Shown here: one piece after another, positions 26,067 to 37,332 of the stretch
How positions within the stretch are numbered: the stretch's first letter is position 1
Layout of the letters: the number at the start of each line of letters is the position of its first letter
NCBI RefSeq assembly: GCF_947489565.1
Contig: NZ_CANLEA010000007.1
Location: 62,001 to 126,000 of the forward strand
Source: an uncultured Kordia sp.
GTDB taxonomy: Bacteria > Bacteroidota > Bacteroidia > Flavobacteriales > Flavobacteriaceae
Reading direction: 5' to 3'
DNA length: 64,000 bases
The notes under the pieces: generated by a model
Database searches by the model: none
What the model saw: the letters and a program-made list of their open reading frames with translations, nothing else
What the model was told of the DNA's origin: nothing
Position numbers and translations under genes: made by a program

Positions 26067-26282
26067 ATGAAAAAAAAGAATCTAAAAAGTTTAAAGTTGA
26101 AAAGAAGTGTTATTTGCAACTTTACCAAAGAGAAGATCACTGGAGGAACGCAATATGTATGTCCTACGTTTGCCGCTGATCGTGTAACCTGTCCAGGATA
26201 TCAAGGAAATCCCGGTCCATGTCAATACCCAAAAAGTATCGGAGCGATTCGTTGTGACGTTCCTGTTGATAGAGATTTTTAA
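26067..26282 (+). CDS. GG-leader peptide, Cys-containing (lanthipeptide-like precursor), orphan
   Basis: 71 residues from the ATG at 26067. The leader is residues 1-27 with the KSLKLKRSVI pattern and a Gly-Gly at 26-27, matching the five leaders at 33104-34362. The core (28-71) has four Cys (CPTFAADRVTCPGYQGNPGPC and a later RCDVP), several Thr and Ser, and Gly/Pro, unlike the others. It resembles Bacteroidota class I lanthipeptide precursors, but no LanB or LanC homologue is in the window, so modification is not shown. Confidence 0.7.
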   Translation: MKKKNLKSLKLKRSVICNFTKEKITGGTQYVCPTFAADRVTCPGYQGNPGPCQYPKSIGAIRCDVPVDRDF

Positions 26283-29508: not shown

Positions 29509-31128
29509 ATGACTAAAAAGACCGCCAAAAACAAAACGCAATATAATTTTAACGATGCTTGGGAAGACTTGTTAGAAAACAAAGACTTTGTCAAGGCATT
29601 TCTTTCAGATGTATTGGAAGATTACATCATCAAACAGCGTTGGTATGGTGGAAAAGCGAGTCAATTAAAATATATTGAACTGTCGGAATATTTCCGCATT
29701 CAGCAACATGGCGAAGTCTATTATGGTTTAATTTTGGAAGTCAATTTTGTAGAAGCTTTCTATCAGCATTATTTCTTACCGATTGCTTTTGTGTCGGATG
29801 AAAGTTTTGCCAAAGAAGATCGAATTTTGCCAATCAGTATCAAAAATCAAGAAGGATTTATCATTGATGCCATCAACTTAGAAGCGTTTCGTAAATTGGT
29901 TTTTGAGCGTATCCAAACGGCAATTCCAAACGATCAAACACGTGTGCAGTATCATAAAAGTTTGCAATTTAACGATGTATACAAATCGTCCCGTTTTATG
30001 GGCTTAGAGCAAAGCAATACGTCGATTGTGTACAATGAAACTTGTGTGTTGAAATTCTTCAGAAGAATCTATGCGAATAAAAATCCTGACTATGAAATGA
30101 GTCGATTTTTATCAGAAAAAAAGCAATACAAAAATACGCCAGCATATCTTGGAAGTCTCAGCATTGTAGATTCCGACAAGGAAAATATTACCATCGGACT
30201 CATGCAAGAAATGGTGCCCAATGAAGGTGATGCTTGGGATTATATGTTGAAAGAATTACACAAAGTATTCCTAAATCTGGAAGCTAAAAATATAGACATT
30301 CGCAAACTACCCGAAACGGAATTATTTGAACGTTTAAGCATTCGCGATGTATCTCCAAGAATCATTGATTGGGTTGGATTGAATTTATTCCTAAAGGTTC
30401 AAAAACTGGCAGAACGTACCGCAGAAATGCACATTGCTTTGGGAAGTGAATTTGAAGAAACAGCTTTTACACCAACGCATTTTAATGGCGATTATACGGT
30501 TTGGTTGAAAAATAGATTGCTCTATCAATTCCAAAACCGATTGAATACCGTCGAAAATAATCTGCACAAACTAGAAGGTTTGTCATTAGAACTAGCACAA
30601 GAATTTTTAGACAATAAAAACAGCATTCGTAAACGTTTGGTAAATTTTGATTGGACAAAGTTGAAAGGCGAACGTATTCGAGTGCATGGCGATTATCACT
30701 TAGGTCAAATTTTGGTTAAAGATGACGATTTCTACATTCTCGATTTTGAAGGTGAACCCGAAAGTACCATTCGCGATCGTAAAGTAAAACAGCCGCCGCT
30801 CAAAGATGTAGCAGGATTATTTAGAAGCTTTCACTATGCTATTTATGCTACTATATTCAATCACAAAGACGAATACAAACGCAATCAAGAAGAATTGTTT
30901 GAAGCGGGCGAAGTATTATATACATACTTCATTGGCGTATTCTTAAAAACATACATTACCAAAATTCAAGCTGCCAATTTAAACATTGGCTACAGTCAAG
31001 AACGCATCTTTTTACTAAAATATTCATTGCTCGAAAAAGCGATTTACGAACTTGGGTATGAACTCAATTCACGACCACTTTGGGCAGTCATTCCACTCAA
31101 AGGAATCACAAACATTATCAATCATTAA
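29509..31128 (+). CDS. mak: maltokinase
   Basis: Phosphorylates maltose to maltose-1-phosphate with ATP, feeding GlgE. The 539-residue protein has a maltokinase N-terminal domain (FVKAFLSDVLEDYIIKQRWY and GGKA, the KxRWF/Y GGK signature) and an aminoglycoside-phosphotransferase-like kinase core. RVHGDYHLGQILV carries the catalytic Asp and FYILDFEGEP the magnesium-binding Asp. In many bacteria mak is fused to or next to treS; here it stands alone between glgE and glgB. The start is ATG 17 bases after glgE; the stop is 3 bases before glgB. Confidence 0.93.
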   Translation: MTKKTAKNKTQYNFNDAWEDLLENKDFVKAFLSDVLEDYIIKQRWYGGKASQLKYIELSEYFRIQQHGEVYYGLILEVNFVEAFYQHYFLPIAFVSDESFAKEDRILPISIKNQEGFIIDAINLEAFRKLVFERIQTAIPNDQTRVQYHKSLQFNDVYKSSRFMGLEQSNTSIVYNETCVLKFFRRIYANKNPDYEMSRFLSEKKQYKNTPAYLGSLSIVDSDKENITIGLMQEMVPNEGDAWDYMLKELHKVFLNLEAKNIDIRKLPETELFERLSIRDVSPRIIDWVGLNLFLKVQKLAERTAEMHIALGSEFEETAFTPTHFNGDYTVWLKNRLLYQFQNRLNTVENNLHKLEGLSLELAQEFLDNKNSIRKRLVNFDWTKLKGERIRVHGDYHLGQILVKDDDFYILDFEGEPESTIRDRKVKQPPLKDVAGLFRSFHYAIYATIFNHKDEYKRNQEELFEAGEVLYTYFIGVFLKTYITKIQAANLNIGYSQERIFLLKYSLLEKAIYELGYELNSRPLWAVIPLKGITNIINH

Positions 31129-31131
31129 TTT

Positions 31132-33042
31132 ATGGCAAAAGTAGTTCCACATAGTTTATTCTCTGACTTTGATATTGACTTATTCAAAGGCGGGAAACAT
31201 TACAAATTGTATGAAAAATTTGGTTCGCATATCATGACTGTCGATGGTGTAGAAGGAACCTATTTTGCAGTTTGGGCACCAAGTGCAAAAACGGTTTCTG
31301 TCATTGGTGATTTTAACTTTTGGATAGAAGGCGAACATCAACTCAACGTACGTTGGGACGCAAGTGGAATTTGGGAAGGATTCATTCCCAATGTTGGAAA
31401 AGGAACTACATACAAATACAAAATACAAAGTCATCATAACGACATCAAAACGGAAAAAGCAGATCCGTATGCGCGTCGTTGTGAGCATCCGCCAAAAACT
31501 GCTTCCATTGTTTGGGATGCTGATCACGATTGGAAAGATGCCGATTGGATGACCAAACGTAAAAAGCACAATGCCTTAGATGCGCCATTTTCTGTGTATG
31601 AAGTGCATTTAGGTTCGTGGAAGCGAAAAGTAGCAGAAAACAAATTCTTATCGTATACTGAATTGGCAGATGAATTGGTGGCGTATGTAAAAGAAATGAA
31701 CTTTACACATGTCGAATTGATGCCCGTAATGGAATATCCGTACGATCCAAGTTGGGGCTATCAATTGGTAGGATATTTTGCGCCAACCTCCCGATTTGGC
31801 TATCCTGAAGAATTCAAATTATTGGTTGATAAATTACACCAAAACGATATCGGAATCATCTTAGATTGGGTTCCATCACACTTTCCAGAAGATGCGCACG
31901 GACTCGGTTTTTTTGATGGAACCTGTTTGTATGAACATCCTGATAAACGAAAAGGCTATCATCCCGATTGGAAAAGTTTGATCTTTAATTACGGTCGAAA
32001 CGAAGTAAAATCGTTCCTAATCAGTAATGCTATTTTTTGGCTTGAACAATATCACGCCGATGGTTTACGTGTAGATGCGGTAGCTTCCATGTTATTTTTA
32101 GATTATTCTAGAAACGATGGCGAATGGGAACCGAATCAATTTGGCGGACGCGAAAATCTAGAAGCCATTGCATTTATGCGCGAAATGAACGAAGCTGTGT
32201 ATACAATGTTTCCAGACGTACAAACCATTGCCGAAGAATCGACGTCATTTCCAATGGTATCACGTCCAACGAGTATTGGCGGACTCGGTTTTGGAATGAA
32301 ATGGATGATGGGTTGGATGCATGACACATTGCAATATTTTGCGAAAGAACCTATTTATCGCAGACATCATCAAAATGATTTAACCTTTAGTATGACTTAT
32401 GCGTTTACGGAAAACTTTATGTTGCCGTTGTCACATGATGAGGTTGTGTATGGAAAACATTCCATTTTGGGAAGAATGCCAGGCGATGAATGGCAACGCT
32501 TTGCGAATTTACGTTTGTTGTACAGTTATATGTTTACACATCCAGGGACAAACTTACTCTTTCAAGGTTCAGAATTTGGACAAAGTGAAGAATGGAATTT
32601 TGAGCAAAGTCTCGATTGGCATTTGCTGGAATATGACGTGCATAAAGGAGTGCAAACGCTCATCAAGGATTTAAACAATCTCTACAAAACGGAACCAGCA
32701 TTACACGAAAAACAATTTACAGCAGATGGTTTTGAGTGGATCGATTATAACGATGCTGGAAACTCAGTATTAATCTATATCCGCAAAGGAAAAAAGCCAG
32801 CAAATGATTTGGTGATTGCGTGTAATATGACACCAATTCCACATGAAAACTATCGTATTGGATTGCCAAGAAAAGGAAATTTGCAAGAAATCTTCAACAG
32901 TGACTTAAAACAATACGCTGGAACGAACGATTTTGTAAATACCAAAGTTACTTCTGATGAACTTGAATGGCAATTCAGAAATCATTCTACAGAAATAAAA
33001 ATTCCGCCGTTAGGAATGGTCGTATTAAAATATAGATCTTAA
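31132..33042 (+). CDS. glgB: 1,4-alpha-glucan branching enzyme
   Basis: Introduces alpha-1,6 branches in the glucan. The 636-residue product begins with a CBM48-like beta-sandwich (YFAVWAPSAKTVSVIGDFNF), followed by a GH13 barrel. The nucleophile Asp is D315 in GLRVDAVAS, the acid Glu is E368 in TIAEESTSFP, and SHDEVVYGK follows. NLLFQGSEFGQSEEW and the C-terminal IPPLGMVVLKYR are family-typical. Compared with glgB of enteric bacteria the N1 domain is absent, as in many shorter members. Last gene of the glgE-mak-glgB operon. Confidence 0.97.
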   Translation: MAKVVPHSLFSDFDIDLFKGGKHYKLYEKFGSHIMTVDGVEGTYFAVWAPSAKTVSVIGDFNFWIEGEHQLNVRWDASGIWEGFIPNVGKGTTYKYKIQSHHNDIKTEKADPYARRCEHPPKTASIVWDADHDWKDADWMTKRKKHNALDAPFSVYEVHLGSWKRKVAENKFLSYTELADELVAYVKEMNFTHVELMPVMEYPYDPSWGYQLVGYFAPTSRFGYPEEFKLLVDKLHQNDIGIILDWVPSHFPEDAHGLGFFDGTCLYEHPDKRKGYHPDWKSLIFNYGRNEVKSFLISNAIFWLEQYHADGLRVDAVASMLFLDYSRNDGEWEPNQFGGRENLEAIAFMREMNEAVYTMFPDVQTIAEESTSFPMVSRPTSIGGLGFGMKWMMGWMHDTLQYFAKEPIYRRHHQNDLTFSMTYAFTENFMLPLSHDEVVYGKHSILGRMPGDEWQRFANLRLLYSYMFTHPGTNLLFQGSEFGQSEEWNFEQSLDWHLLEYDVHKGVQTLIKDLNNLYKTEPALHEKQFTADGFEWIDYNDAGNSVLIYIRKGKKPANDLVIACNMTPIPHENYRIGLPRKGNLQEIFNSDLKQYAGTNDFVNTKVTSDELEWQFRNHSTEIKIPPLGMVVLKYRS

Positions 33043-33051
33043 GTATTGACA

Positions 33052-33076
33052 CAAAAAAGCGAACCTAAGTCCGCTT
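33052..33076 (-). terminator. terminator for the first GG-leader peptide (minus strand)
   Basis: On the minus strand AAGCGGAC-TTAG-GTTCGCTT is followed by TTTT. The 8-base stem includes one G-T pair. It lies after the stop of the peptide gene 33104-33286 and is convergent with glgB. Confidence 0.75.
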
Positions 33077-33103
33077 CAACAATACTTTCTGAAGTTATAT
33101 TTA

Positions 33104-33286
33104 TTAATTAGTATAGTCAGTTATTTCTTGTGAAATTTCGATAGTCGCCTCAATAATTTCGATACAGATAGTACCCAAAGTACAGGTCATAGAAGCAGTC
33201 ATGCTACCGCCATTCACTTTAGCAGTTTCTATATTTGAAATCGCTCTTTTCTTAAGATCTAATGATTTTAAAGTTCTTTTTTTCAT
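33104..33286 (-). CDS. GG-leader peptide 1 (two Cys)
   Basis: 60 residues. Leader residues 1-27: MKKRTLKSLDLKKRAIS, then a short NIETAKVN stretch and GG at 26-27. Core: SMTASMTCTLGTICIEIIEA and on to EITDYTN at the end. The C-T-L-G-T-I-C spacing recurs in peptide 2 (CTFGVFC). The leader motif KSLxLKK matches Bacteroidota class I lanthipeptide or GG-cleaved peptides. It has its own terminator at 33052 and is separated from peptide 2 by 158 bases containing another terminator, so it is probably transcribed on its own. Modification and function unknown. Confidence 0.8.
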   Translation of the reverse strand: MKKRTLKSLDLKKRAISNIETAKVNGGSMTASMTCTLGTICIEIIEATIEISQEITDYTN

Positions 33287-33387
33287 AGTTAAATTTTTGA
33301 ATGAATTAAAAAAAGTGCTTTAAAAGTAAGAAGAGTAGTTGGAGCAGAAATCGTACAATTTGTAGTAAAAATTATTTCATGTTGCTC

Positions 33388-33417
33388 ATAAAAAAAGCGA
33401 ACTAAAAAGCTCGCTTT
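33388..33417 (-). terminator. terminator for the GG-leader peptide 2-5 run (minus strand)
   Basis: Arms AAAGCGA (33394-33400) and TCGCTTT (33411-33417) pair perfectly around a 10-base loop. On the minus strand the stem is followed by a run of T. It ends the transcript that carries peptides 2-5. Confidence 0.8.
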
Positions 33418-33444
33418 GCATGAAAACTTATATGTGTAAAAATA

Positions 33445-33627
33445 CTAATTATTTGCACTTTCATTCCAACCATCTATAAATCCATCAATTGCGATTTCTA
33501 CGGTTACACAAAAAACACCAAACGTACAGCTAATAGATGTAATACTTCCTCCATTAAGTTTGGAAGTTTCAAAAGTTGAGATTGTTTTTTTATTTAGATC
33601 TAGTGATTTTATAGCTCTTTTTTTCAT
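33445..33627 (-). CDS. GG-leader peptide 2 (two Cys)
   Basis: 60 residues; leader MKKRAIKSLDLNKKTIS... with GG at 26-27. The core SITSISCTFGVFCVTVEIAI has two Cys with the same C-T-hydrophobic-G-x-hydrophobic-C spacing as peptide 1. Its end GFIDGWNESANN differs somewhat from the I-T-D-aromatic tail. It follows peptide 3 by 36 bases on the same strand and is ended by the terminator at 33388-33417. Confidence 0.8.
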   Translation of the reverse strand: MKKRAIKSLDLNKKTISTFETSKLNGGSITSISCTFGVFCVTVEIAIDGFIDGWNESANN

Positions 33628-33663
33628 AATATATTTTTTTTAGATAAATATTTGATATTCAGT

Positions 33664-33858
33664 TTAGTTGAAATAATCAGTGATAAATTCTACAGCATCT
33701 ACAACTGCATCCATAGCAGCATCTACAGCATGAGGAGTTACAGGCGTGTATACCGTTACATTTGTAGGTGTTGTGCTTCCGCCATTCACTTTAGCAGTTT
33801 CAAAATTTGAGATCGTTTTTTTGTTTAATTCTAATGATTTGATCGTTCTTTTTTTCAT
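33664..33858 (-). CDS. GG-leader peptide 3 (no Cys)
   Basis: 64 residues; leader MKKRTIKSLELNKKTIS... with GG at 26-27. The core STTPTNVTVYTPVTPHAVDA is rich in Thr but has no Cys, so a lanthionine ring cannot form within it. It continues to DAVVDAVEFITDYFN, an amphipathic helix-like tail with the ITDYFN end. The V-Y-T-P-V stretch also occurs in peptide 4, so these two are the closest pair. No enzyme gene adjoins. Confidence 0.8.
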   Translation of the reverse strand: MKKRTIKSLELNKKTISNFETAKVNGGSTTPTNVTVYTPVTPHAVDAAMDAVVDAVEFITDYFN

Positions 33859-33903
33859 AATAAAAATGTTTGATTTTTAGCTTTTAATAGGTGCGCAGAT
33901 TGT

Positions 33904-34077
33904 TTAGTCAAAAAAATCTGTTATTGCGTCTAAAGCTGCATCAATTGCCACCACCATTACTGGCGTGTACACAGCAGTACTCGTAGGAGCAGTACTTCCT
34001 CCTTTAACTTTTGAACTGTCTAAAATTGAAATAGTTTTCTTATTTAGTTCTAATGATTTGATAGTTCTTTTTTTCAT
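33904..34077 (-). CDS. GG-leader peptide 4 (no Cys)
   Basis: 57 residues read directly from the reverse strand (ATG 34075-34077, TAA 33904-33906). Leader MKKRTIKSLELNKKTIS then ILDSSKVKGG. Core STAPTSTAVYTPVMVVAIDA then ALDAITDFFD. It shares VYTPV and the C-terminal I-T-D-F-F-D end with peptide 3. No Cys. It lies 45 bases upstream of peptide 3. Confidence 0.8.
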   Translation of the reverse strand: MKKRTIKSLELNKKTISILDSSKVKGGSTAPTSTAVYTPVMVVAIDAALDAITDFFD

Positions 34078-34188
34078 AATTAATGTTTTGGTAGTTAGTT
34101 CTTAAGTTATTTCTCTGTCTCAAAGAAATAGTAGAGAATGCTTTACAAGTTTAAATGTATGTAAAGACGTATTTCAATTCAACTAAAG

Positions 34189-34362
34189 TTATTCATTATC
34201 TAAATAGTCAATCAAAGCATCAGCCGCAGCTGCAGTCGCATATCCAACAGTTGCCAAATATGCTGTCCAAACAGAATATGATCCTCCTTGTATTTTATCA
34301 GTTTCAATAGTTGAAATTGTTTTTTTATTTAATTCTAATGATTTAATGGTTCTTTTTTTCAT
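34189..34362 (-). CDS. GG-leader peptide 5 (no Cys)
   Basis: 57 residues read directly from the reverse strand (ATG 34360-34362, TAA 34189-34191). Leader MKKRTIKSLELNKKTIS then TIETDKIQGG. Core SYSVWTAYLATVGYATAAAA then DALIDYLDNE. Very Ala-rich, aromatic, no Cys, and ends in an I-D-Y variant of the tail. It is the first gene of the run of four and 111 bases ahead of peptide 4. Confidence 0.78.
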   Translation of the reverse strand: MKKRTIKSLELNKKTISTIETDKIQGGSYSVWTAYLATVGYATAAAADALIDYLDNE

Positions 34363-34929
34363 GATTCAATAATTTAGTGGATTTGATTAAATTGAATATA
34401 TAAAGTAAAGAATTCTCACGCTTTGAAAAGTGCCAAAAAACAAGTCAAAAATTTACCATACGTTAGCGCGAATTTGAAACTCGTGCTATAGAATACAAAA
34501 AGCTAAAAAACAAGCATCCCAAAAAATAGTTAGTGAGCGTTTCCAAACTCGTTTTGATAAATAACAAAATATAAAACGTTCACCTGAACTTAATCCAGCT
34601 TCATATAAGAGTAAGAAAAATTCGTGTGAGTTTCTACGTAAACAATAATCAAAAAACTATTCGTGAATTCGTGACAAAAGCTACTAGAGAGAGTTTATTT
34701 CGACAAACCACAGATAAGAGAAATTTGTACCATTAACCCAGTAAAAACAAAAATATCAATAATGAAATTTAAAGCTCTAAGAATAAGAAAATCATAAAAA
34801 AGTCCCAAAACAATTCACATTTCAATAATTATGATCAACTATAACGTTATCGTTAATAAATCAGGGTTTTAAAGCTTTCAATTCTCTAAACTTTTGCGTT
34901 TTTTTACATATTATCTAAAAAATTACAAG
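34363..34929. other. divergent intergenic region between the peptide array and GH31
   Basis: No gene seen in these 567 bases. It must hold the minus-strand promoter of peptides 5-2 and the plus-strand promoter of the GH31 gene. It contains an ATTCGTGAATTCGTG copy (near 34660) shared with 15949 and the candidate operator at 34842. Confidence 0.6.
34842..34855. promoter_or_regulatory. candidate operator upstream of GH31 gene
   Basis: TAACGTTATCGTTA: arms TAACG and CGTTA around TTAT, 75 bases before the likely ATG. It resembles the site at 27445 upstream of glgE. A LacI-type regulator would fit, but none lies in the window. Confidence 0.4.
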
Positions 34930-37332
34930 ATGATTGTAAACACAGAGTTAGAACAAAAAGGAAATTTGTTTCCATCCAAAATAATAGACTTTAGCAAAGA
35001 CGTCGATACGTTGTATTTTACAGCAGAAAATGATGTGGTTTTGCAATTGCGAATTGTACGCGATAGTGTCTTGCGTTTTCGATATACAACCACAGGAACA
35101 TTTGGAAATGATTTCTCGTACGCCATTACAAAATATGCAAGTACAGGATACAATCATTTAGAAATAGACGAAGACGACGAAAAATACATCATAACCACTT
35201 CAAAATTGATTTGTCATATTTCCAAAGCAAACATGCGTGTGAAATTATATGATGTAAAAGACAATACCTTGATCAATGAAGACGAACTTGGTTTCCATTG
35301 GGAAGAAAGTTACGAGTACGGTGGAAACATCGTAAAAATGAGCAAAACCGTCAATGAACGTGAAAGCTATTTTGGACTAGGCGATAAGCCAGAACATCTT
35401 AACTTAAAAGGAAAGCGTTTCCAAAATTGGGTGACTGATTCATACGCTTATGGAAAACATACAGATCCTATCTACAAAGCAATTCCGTTTTACACAGGAT
35501 TGCATCATAACAAAGCCTACGGAATCTTTTTTGACAATACTTTTAGAAGTTATTTTGACTTTGCACACGAACGCAGAAATGTAACTAGTTTTTGGGCACA
35601 AGGTGGCGAAATGAATTACTATTTCTTCTATGGACCAGAAATGCAAGATGTCGTAGAAAGTTATACAGATTTAACGGGAAAACCGCATCAATTACCGCCA
35701 TTATGGGCATTAGGATATCATCAGTGTAAATGGAGTTACTATCCAGAAAGTAATGTGAAAGAAATCACTAAGAAATTTAGAGACTTAAAAATTCCGTGTG
35801 ACGCCATCTATTTGGATATTGATTATATGGATGGTTTCCGTTGTTTTACGTGGAATAAAAACCACTTTCCAGACCCGAAACGCATGGTAAAAGAATTGGC
35901 AGATGATGGTTTTAAAACCGTTGCGATTATTGATCCCGGAATCAAAATAGACAAAGAATACAGTGTTTTTAAAGAAGCATTAGACAAAGATTATTTCTGC
36001 AAACGTGCTGATGGACCGTATATGAAAGGAAAAGTATGGCCAGGCGAATGCTATTTCCCCGATTTTACAAAACCAGAAGTGCGTGATTGGTGGTCAGGAT
36101 TATTCAAAGAGCTGATTGAAGACATCGGAATCAAAGGTGTGTGGAACGATATGAACGAACCTGCTGTGATGGAAGTGCCAAACAAAACATTTCCAGACGA
36201 TGTACGTCACGATTATGATGGAAACCCTTGCAGTCACCGAAAAGCGCATAATGTATACGGAATGCAGATGGCGCGTGCAACTTATCAAGGATTAAAGAAA
36301 TTCAACTATCCAAAACGTCCATTTGTCATTACACGAGCAGCCTATTCAGGAACGCAGCGTTATACCTCAACTTGGACAGGTGACAATGTAGCAACTTGGG
36401 AACATTTGTGGATTGCCAATGTACAAGCACAACGTATGGCAATGTCTGGTTTTTCTTTTGTAGGAAGTGATATTGGTGGATTTGCTGAACAACCGCAAGG
36501 AGAACTATTTACACGTTGGATTCAGCTTGGAATCTTTCATCCGTTTTGTAGAGTCCATTCTTCGGGAGATCACGGCGATCAAGAACCATGGGCATTTGAT
36601 GAAGATGTAACGGATGTAGTACGTAAGTTTGTAGAATTGCGTTATCAACTATTACCATACTTATACACAGCATTTTGGAATTTGGTTGATCATGGAACGC
36701 CATTATTAAAATCTTTAGTAATGTTTGATCAAGCCGATCATCAAACGCATTACAGAACGGACGAATTTGTATTTGGAGATAAAATACTAGTATGTCCAAT
36801 TCAGGAACCCAACAGCAAAGGGCGCAGAATGTATATTCCACGTGGAAAATGGTATAACTTCTGGACAGATGAATTGGTTGAAGGAGGAAAAGAAAAATGG
36901 GTAGATGCCGAAATTGATAGCATGCCAATTTTTGTAAAAGCTGGTGCTGTAATTCCGAAATATCCTGTACAACAATATGTTGGTGAAAAAGAAATTACCG
37001 AAGTAACCTTAGATATTTACTATACAGAAGGAAAAGAGCGTTCGCAATTATTTGATGATGCGCATGATGGATACGATTATACAAAAGGACGTTACAGTCT
37101 AAGAACGTTCAAATTGACTGGAAAACCGAAAGAATTAATCTTACAGCAACACAAACAAGGAAAGTACATTACAACATACGAAAACTTTAAGTTGAATATT
37201 CATGGATTGCCATTCAAAGTCAAAGAAATCCAAATAGACAATGAAACAGTTTCTTTATCAGAAGTGAAAAAAGATGCATCTGGAGCGATGATTGTAGACA
37301 AAAACTTCTCTGAAATTCACATTATTGGATGA
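34930..37332 (+). CDS. GH31 alpha-glucosidase
   Basis: Hydrolyses terminal alpha-glucosidic bonds. From the ATG at 34930 (preferred over a TTG 12 codons earlier) the protein has 800 residues. An N-terminal beta-sandwich precedes YFGLGDKPEHLNLKGKRFQN. The GH31 barrel has the nucleophile Asp407 in GVWNDMNEPAV and the acid/base Asp485 in WTGDNVATW, with FVGSDIGGF nearby. Beta domains at the end include PIFVKAGAVIPKYP. There is no signal peptide, so it is probably cytoplasmic, fitting a role in processing maltodextrins linked to the glgE operon. Confidence 0.93.
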   Translation: MIVNTELEQKGNLFPSKIIDFSKDVDTLYFTAENDVVLQLRIVRDSVLRFRYTTTGTFGNDFSYAITKYASTGYNHLEIDEDDEKYIITTSKLICHISKANMRVKLYDVKDNTLINEDELGFHWEESYEYGGNIVKMSKTVNERESYFGLGDKPEHLNLKGKRFQNWVTDSYAYGKHTDPIYKAIPFYTGLHHNKAYGIFFDNTFRSYFDFAHERRNVTSFWAQGGEMNYYFFYGPEMQDVVESYTDLTGKPHQLPPLWALGYHQCKWSYYPESNVKEITKKFRDLKIPCDAIYLDIDYMDGFRCFTWNKNHFPDPKRMVKELADDGFKTVAIIDPGIKIDKEYSVFKEALDKDYFCKRADGPYMKGKVWPGECYFPDFTKPEVRDWWSGLFKELIEDIGIKGVWNDMNEPAVMEVPNKTFPDDVRHDYDGNPCSHRKAHNVYGMQMARATYQGLKKFNYPKRPFVITRAAYSGTQRYTSTWTGDNVATWEHLWIANVQAQRMAMSGFSFVGSDIGGFAEQPQGELFTRWIQLGIFHPFCRVHSSGDHGDQEPWAFDEDVTDVVRKFVELRYQLLPYLYTAFWNLVDHGTPLLKSLVMFDQADHQTHYRTDEFVFGDKILVCPIQEPNSKGRRMYIPRGKWYNFWTDELVEGGKEKWVDAEIDSMPIFVKAGAVIPKYPVQQYVGEKEITEVTLDIYYTEGKERSQLFDDAHDGYDYTKGRYSLRTFKLTGKPKELILQQHKQGKYITTYENFKLNIHGLPFKVKEIQIDNETVSLSEVKKDASGAMIVDKNFSEIHIIG

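What the first reader, a model, noticed from the sequence alone, without database searches (positions are those of the whole stretch)
33104..34362. Array of five GG-leader peptides with near-identical leaders and divergent cores, no modification enzymes
Five minus-strand genes of 57-64 codons share almost the same first 17 residues (MKKRTIKSLELNKKTIS) and a Gly-Gly at 26-27. Their cores differ: two have two Cys with C-T-x-G-x-x-C spacing, and three have no Cys at all. Bacteroidota class I lanthipeptide leaders look like this (known family), but Cys-less cores cannot form lanthionine rings. No LanB, LanC, radical SAM or peptidase-ABC gene lies in the window. The array sits between glgB and a GH31 gene. 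The peptides could be exported without ring formation, or modified in trans by distant enzymes (inference).
Basis: partly seen in the sequence, partly recalled or inferred. Interest (0 to 1): 0.82.

Follow-up and report, generated by a model that had tools for sequence, protein, structure and literature searches.

The report
Cysteine-free branch of lanthipeptide-type precursor genes
A marine bacterium (genus Kordia) carries five small peptide genes in a row that share one leader tag but differ in their active part; three lack the cysteines that ring-forming peptides of this kind need, yet two related genomes keep such members at the same place, which suggests a real ring-free secreted product.

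Summary
In detail: five minus-strand ORFs (57-64 aa) between glgB and GH31 share a GG leader; two cores carry CTxGxxC, three have no Cys. LanB, LanC, C39 and radical-SAM searches hit elsewhere in the genome, not in the window. The genus is Kordia. Each of 11 genomes has one LanB and 113-150 matches to the leader-type precursor profile, at most 150 being scored. So the array is a branch of a large dispersed set. The branch is odd: of 77 own-genome precursors the only three Cys-free ones are here, and 0 of 25 in an even sample are Cys-free. The array sits at the same site in 3 of 9 readable genomes. One Cys-free core is 30 of 30 identical to its orthologue, and substitutions favour selection over decay. 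Best reading: precursors recognised in trans through the leader; Cys-free ones leave dehydrated or plain, which sequence cannot tell. Large precursor numbers in Kordia's phylum are in print; six paper searches showed no Cys-free array. New variant of a known kind.

The parts
34189..34362 (-). W5, precursor peptide 57 aa, Cys-free core (30 aa)
   Evidence: ORF; core 30 of 30 identical to the orthologue in G006
33904..34077 (-). W4, precursor peptide 57 aa, Cys-free core
   Evidence: ORF; related Cys-free peptide in G005 at the same site, core 14 of 30 aligned positions identical
33664..33858 (-). W3, precursor peptide 64 aa, Cys-free core
   Evidence: ORF; related Cys-free peptide in G005 at the same site, core 15 of 37 aligned positions identical
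33445..33627 (-). W2, precursor peptide 60 aa, core with CTFGVFC
   Evidence: ORF; CTxGxxC shared with one member each in G006 and G005
33104..33286 (-). W1, precursor peptide 60 aa, core with CTLGTIC
   Evidence: ORF; CTxGxxC shared with one member each in G006 and G005
33394..33417 (-). terminator-like stem after W2
   Evidence: pattern scan, 2 found in the region against a mean of 0.7 (sd 1.0) in shuffles
33056..33077 (-). terminator-like stem after W1
   Evidence: pattern scan
31132..33042 (+). glgB, convergent neighbour marking the site
   Evidence: Pfam CBM_48, Alpha-amylase, Alpha-amylase_C; used for synteny
34894..37332 (+). GH31, divergent neighbour marking the site (ORF listed from a TTG; in G005 and G006 the ATG-started ORF is 800 aa)
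   Evidence: Pfam PF01055; synteny
26067..26282 (+). sixth precursor of the same leader type, Cys-rich, not part of the array
   Evidence: leader profile E 1.5e-6

Best explanation
The five genes encode secreted-peptide precursors of the Kordia class I lanthipeptide type. SHOWN: a shared leader with LxLxK and GG; a single split LanB with LanC, HlyD and C39 ABC genes at one locus elsewhere in the genome; many dispersed precursors with the same leader type; substitution patterns that fit selection on leader and core. INFERRED: the leader is bound in trans by LanB and by a C39 transporter, which cuts after GG and exports the core. The two CTxGxxC cores could carry one or two (methyl)lanthionine rings; the three Cys-free cores cannot, and leave either with dehydrated Ser/Thr or unmodified. 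INFERRED: the near-identical leaders act as recombination sites that re-sort cores within the array. A biological role (signal, bacteriocin, partner peptide) is not shown.
For: Leader: 5 of 5 have L9, L11, K13, a hydrophobic residue at 19 and GG at 26-27, close to the motif reported for Bacteroidetes class I LanA (PMC7268733); L9 and K13 are invariant in 77 own-genome precursors. Machinery: one PF04738 match in each of 11 of 11 Kordia genomes; own locus has LanC, LanB N-part, separate LanB C-part, TPR/HTH_18 protein, three precursors, HlyD, C39-ABC. Dispersed substrates: 150 of 150 scored candidates (410 in the first look) match the 77-peptide profile, weakest E 4.6e-7; 15 of these 150 matches run over a stop codon. 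113-150 matches in each of 11 genomes, 150 scored at most. NF038153 scores of two of the three precursors beside LanB are 20.3 and 18.0 bits, also under the cut-off of 22 (the third gave no match); of five array relatives in G005/G006 four score 9.7-21.6 and one gave no match. Selection: W5/G6b core 0 nonsynonymous to 3 synonymous changes, whole gene 2 to 6 (p 0.003); G6c/G5b core 2 to 7, whole gene 2 to 14 (p 1e-8). Array cores keep Ser+Thr (23% in 5 cores against 21% in 72) while Cys falls (2.5% against 11%).
Against: No expression, mass or enzyme data. All five window peptides stay under the NF038153 cut-off and one gives no match. Three cores lack Cys, so 'lanthipeptide' fails for them. 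Six of 77 own precursors match TIGR04149, a radical-SAM RiPP leader model, two array relatives touch it weakly (11 bits, cut-off 25), and the genome has 22 radical-SAM hits, so another modification is not excluded. Four C39 hits exist, one of them partial and weak, so the transporter is unknown. The synonymous distance of W5/G6b is itself low (0.13-0.20 against 0.61 for glgB and 0.80 for GH31), so recent exchange explains part of the identity. The array is absent from the nearest relative by glgB, G008. The AlphaFold model was too poor to use (pLDDT 56).
Confidence: 0.62

Rival explanations
1. The Cys-free peptides are plain unmodified GG-leader peptides (signal or microcin-like) that use the leader only for C39 export and never meet LanB in a productive way.
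For: No Cys in 6 of 10 array peptides of three genomes; the five window cores have no Lys or Arg and are hydrophobic; C39 hits present; no LanB, LanC or radical-SAM hit nearby.
Against: The leader is of the same type as that of the Cys-rich precursors, including those beside LanB. No known immunity or receptor gene was recognised in the gap; it holds, besides overlapping frames, three unexamined ORFs of 34-37 aa between W5 and GH31.
Confidence: 0.4
2. The array is a decaying remnant of Cys-rich lanthipeptide genes and its cores drift.
For: The CTxGxxC cores resemble the C-terminal part of longer Cys-rich cores with CTEGVVC (L026, L053, L083), so Cys loss from such an ancestor is plausible; no leader peptide at 4 of 9 readable sites.
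Against: Five intact ORFs, conserved cores between species, excess of synonymous changes.
Confidence: 0.08
3. The array is a core-diversifying locus: recombination inside leaders swaps cores, and the products matter as a varied set. This is compatible with the best explanation.
For: W5, its spacer and the start of the next leader are conserved as one block in G006; similarity fades inside the next leader, and the following core is Cys-free in the window but CTxGxxC in G006. The same site holds other, Cys-rich leader peptides in the other orientation in 2 of 9 genomes.
Against: Only three arrays known; gene loss and duplication could give the same picture.
Confidence: 0.3

Closest known systems
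Class I lanthipeptide precursors of Bacteroidetes with LxLxKx5L leaders, many ending in GG (PMC7268733; passages seen)
   Same: Leader motif, GG end; C39 protease and split LanB are reported for such clusters and present in this genome
   Different: The array lies away from LanB/LanC and three of five cores have no Cys. That study discarded ORFs with no Cys in the estimated core.
Prochlorosins / synechococsins (ProcM, 29 substrates; SyncM, 79; PMC10783134, passages seen)
   Same: One enzyme, many dispersed precursors with like leaders and variable cores; PMC11251773 (two passages seen) says substrates of this promiscuous synthetase include peptides lacking cysteines
   Different: Class II LanM and Nif11-type leaders there; split class I LanB here
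Kordia RiPP richness (PMC11118758, passages seen)
   Same: Kordia named as RiPP-rich; up to 176 precursors on one Bacteroidota genome; LanC beside nucleotidyltransferase around precursors
   Different: The passages seen mention no Cys-free array; its supplements were not open to me
Pinensins (Chitinophaga; named in passages of PMC9248904 and PMC7268733)
   Same: Bacteroidota class I with split LanB
   Different: Antifungal product with its own cluster; that its core contains Cys is recalled
Class II microcins (recalled, no call)
   Same: GG leader, C39 export, no ring chemistry needed
   Different: No immunity gene recognised beside the array

Membership tests
Bacteroidota class I lanthipeptide precursor | LxLxKx5L leader motif | tested here: met
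   L9, L11, K13 invariant in 5 of 5; position 19 is I, F, F, L, I, hydrophobic but strictly Leu only in W4
Bacteroidota class I lanthipeptide precursor | GG at the leader end | tested here: met
   G26 G27 in 5 of 5
Bacteroidota class I lanthipeptide precursor | Score over the NF038153 cut-off (22 bits) | tested here: not met
   4 of 5 give 9.8-13 bits, 1 of 5 no match; two array relatives give 21.5 and 21.6
Bacteroidota class I lanthipeptide precursor | Cys in the core for lanthionine rings | tested here: not met
   2 of 5 have two Cys, 3 of 5 none; W3, W4 and W5 are therefore not filed as lanthipeptides
Bacteroidota class I lanthipeptide precursor | LanB and LanC in the same cluster | tested here: not met
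   The only PF04738 match is on another contig, C2:166694-168664; LANC_like matches are on C16, C6, C2 and C27
Bacteroidota class I lanthipeptide precursor | (Methyl)lanthionine in the product | not testable with these tools
   needs mass spectrometry
Prochlorosin-like one-enzyme, many-substrate system | Single synthetase, dispersed precursors with like leaders | tested here: met
   One LanB N-part in 11 of 11 genomes; 113-150 profile matches in each, 150 scored at most. That LanB acts on them is not shown.
Prochlorosin-like one-enzyme, many-substrate system | LanM and Nif11 leader | not tested
   LanM was not searched; 47 of 77 precursors match the class I leader model at E up to 0.1
Unmodified GG bacteriocin / class II microcin | Immunity gene beside the peptide | tested here: inconclusive
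   None recognised; three ORFs of 34-37 aa between W5 and GH31 were not examined, and immunity could lie elsewhere

The most novel reading that the evidence does not exclude
Kordia uses a class I LanB acting in trans to make ring-free, dehydrated linear peptides from a selected Cys-free branch of its precursor set, with cores re-sorted by recombination between near-identical leaders: a product type that Cys-requiring mining cannot see.
Probability: 0.22. Interest if true: 0.72.

Novelty: new variant of a known kind. Interest (0 to 1): 0.5.

Why it matters
If true, leader identity rather than core chemistry decides what enters a lanthipeptide pathway, and a filter used in published mining (drop ORFs with no Cys in the core, PMC7268733) removes conserved members. 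It gives a clean test: one leader type, one LanB per genome, and cores with and without Cys side by side.

Tried and rejected
Pfam on the five peptides gave one hit, to an unrelated family (ERGIC_N, 17 bits, cut-off 27). AlphaFold on the ten-peptide alignment gave pLDDT 56 and two helices, not used. The promoter scan found no more sites than shuffles (8 against a mean of 9.4). Of 299 genomes of the family (own included; at most 21 candidates scored in the rows shown) 5 matched the ten-peptide profile at E 1e-8: two Kordia and three of two other genera, the latter with matches ending at profile position 29-44 of 57, mostly leader. L019 held no whole ORF of 150 aa or more, so the C39 gene was read from L133. 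The idea of a unique precursor locus was dropped. A first regular expression gave 82 ORFs, some clearly false; a stricter one gave 77.

Biases: the 77 peptides come from 30 stretches (574,182 bases with the window) picked because leader or lan genes were hit there or because they flank the window. The even sample of 20 x 20 kb lies on contigs C1-C6 only; its 25 hits extrapolate to 401 per genome, bootstrap range 161-691. (149 distinct peptides, 7 Cys-free) included six loci of other genera; one search dropped these six (L112, L113, L114, L116, L118, L120) and found 203 distinct peptides in 188 sequences, 7 Cys-free: six of the array kind and one beside LanB in G007. The dN/dS figures cover 15 pairs, 6 of the 10 possible pairs within the window.

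Full report
CHECK. The five ORFs, their strand, lengths, GG and Cys pattern are as described. They lie between a branching enzyme and a GH31 enzyme, opposite to both in strand. Gaps between the genes are 111, 45, 36 and 158 bases from W5 to W1 (from the coordinates), with terminator-like stems after W2 and after W1, so W5-W2 may be one transcript and W1 another (inference).

GENOME. The window is bases 62001-126000 of contig C7 in a 6.42 Mb genome of 100 contigs. Four of four named loci found with the array profile are Kordia; the contig of K. periserrulae DSM 25731 (645,661 bases) has the length of contig C2 of G005, which carries a two-member array. The own genome has one LanB N-part hit, six LANC_like hits, four C39 hits and 22 radical-SAM hits, none in the window. 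The LanB locus reads LanC, LanB N-part, separate LanB C-part, a TPR/HTH_18 protein, three precursors, then on the other strand HlyD and a C39 ABC transporter.

HOW MANY RELATIVES. A search with one peptide gave 29 places. A 77-peptide profile matched 150 of 150 scored candidates, of 410 first-look candidates; 15 of the 150 matches run over a stop codon. Across 11 Kordia genomes 113-150 matched, 150 scored at most. An even sample gave 25 in 400 kb, each with GG at the end of the leader, and 0 in the reversed control. High counts are in print: up to 176 RiPP precursors on one Bacteroidota genome, with Kordia as an example of a RiPP-rich genus (PMC11118758, passages). NCBIfam NF038153 matched 47 of 77 at E up to 0.1; TIGR04149 (radical-SAM RiPP) matched 6 and NF038158 (class I) 4.

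WHAT IS ODD. In the 77, Cys-free cores number 3, all in the array; if placed at random, three such would fall among these five with probability 1.4e-4, a test framed after seeing the pattern. In the even sample 0 of 25 are Cys-free. Of 203 distinct peptides from the Kordia sequences held, 7 are Cys-free, six of them array members of three genomes; the seventh lies beside LanB in G007, where two other genomes have a one-Cys version. The five array cores have no Lys or Arg. Their net charge of -4 to -5 lies inside the 5-95% range of the other 72 (-7 to 3). Their hydropathy (0.26 to 0.81) lies well above the median of the others (-0.32; 95th percentile 0.54).

CONSERVATION. glgB was found in 10 of 11 genomes; G004's contig ends soon after it; so 9 sites can be read, own included. 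Array type: 3 of 9 (own 5 genes, G006 3, G005 2). Other, Cys-containing leader peptides in the other orientation: 2 of 9 (G001 3 genes, G002 1). No leader peptide: 4 of 9 (G003, G007, G008, G010). The nearest relative by glgB, G008 (94%), has none, so loss or transfer must be invoked. W5 and its G006 counterpart agree in 30 of 30 core and 25 of 27 leader residues; G6c and G5b in 23 of 25 and 27 of 27. Synonymous changes exceed nonsynonymous ones: core p 0.017 and 0.0004, whole gene p 0.003 and 1e-8. The other window members have no such close orthologue; their nearest relatives share 14-15 core positions (W1 15 of 33, W3 15 of 37, W4 14 of 30) or 8 of 33 (W2). W5/G6b is also unusually close at synonymous sites (6 of 41 against 168 of 402 in glgB, p 0.0006), which points to recent exchange or constraint on the DNA.

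CORE SWAPS. The conserved block holds W5, its spacer and the first part of the next leader; then similarity fades, and the next core is Cys-free in the window but CTxGxxC in G006. Within the window, paralogue leaders have dN 0.08-0.17 and cores 0.28-1.02 (six of ten pairs). This fits recombination at leaders, though loss and duplication could give the same.

MECHANISM AND LIMITS. The leader suggests binding by LanB and cutting by C39 in trans; neither was tested. Ser and Thr are kept while Cys is lost, which allows dehydration without rings but does not prove it. Radical-SAM modification is not excluded. Precedent for Cys-free substrates of a promiscuous class II synthetase: PMC11251773 (two passages). 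Published lanthipeptide mining dropped ORFs with no Cys in the core (PMC7268733, passages). Passages of PMC10734526, PMC7477175, PMC9248904 and PMC11519912 were also seen; those on Kordia report rich gene clusters, among them a lanthipeptide and a proteusin-like one, but no Cys-free array. My six paper searches listed no account of one; most subscription journals and bioRxiv as such are not in that library.

VERDICT. Real, intact, under selection where it could be tested (two orthologous pairs), and part of a known kind of system; the Cys-free branch is the new element. Interest 0.5.

Noticed in passing
   Followed up: partly
L044:7801-11063, L045:9221-11551, L046:9450-11496: LanC-like protein, nucleotidyltransferase-like protein and a GG precursor side by side, with no LanB; a like pairing is reported for Kordia in PMC11118758.
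   Followed up: partly
L043:8263-10973: HopA1-family domain protein, LanC and a GG precursor in a row.
   Followed up: no
L047:5337-18841: A C39 ABC locus with two longer small proteins (119 and 104 aa) that carry a GG of another leader type.
   Followed up: no
window 34078-34362 and L080:5282-5565: W5 and its noncoding spacer are much more alike between two species than synonymous sites of the flanking genes; unexplained.
   Followed up: partly
L130:3348-4213 and L127:5238-5405: The glgB-GH31 gap holds other, Cys-containing precursors in the other orientation in two Kordia genomes, so the site is used repeatedly.
   Followed up: yes
window 29509-31128 (+): 539-aa protein between the GlgE and glgB genes with no Pfam match at 1e-5.
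   Followed up: no
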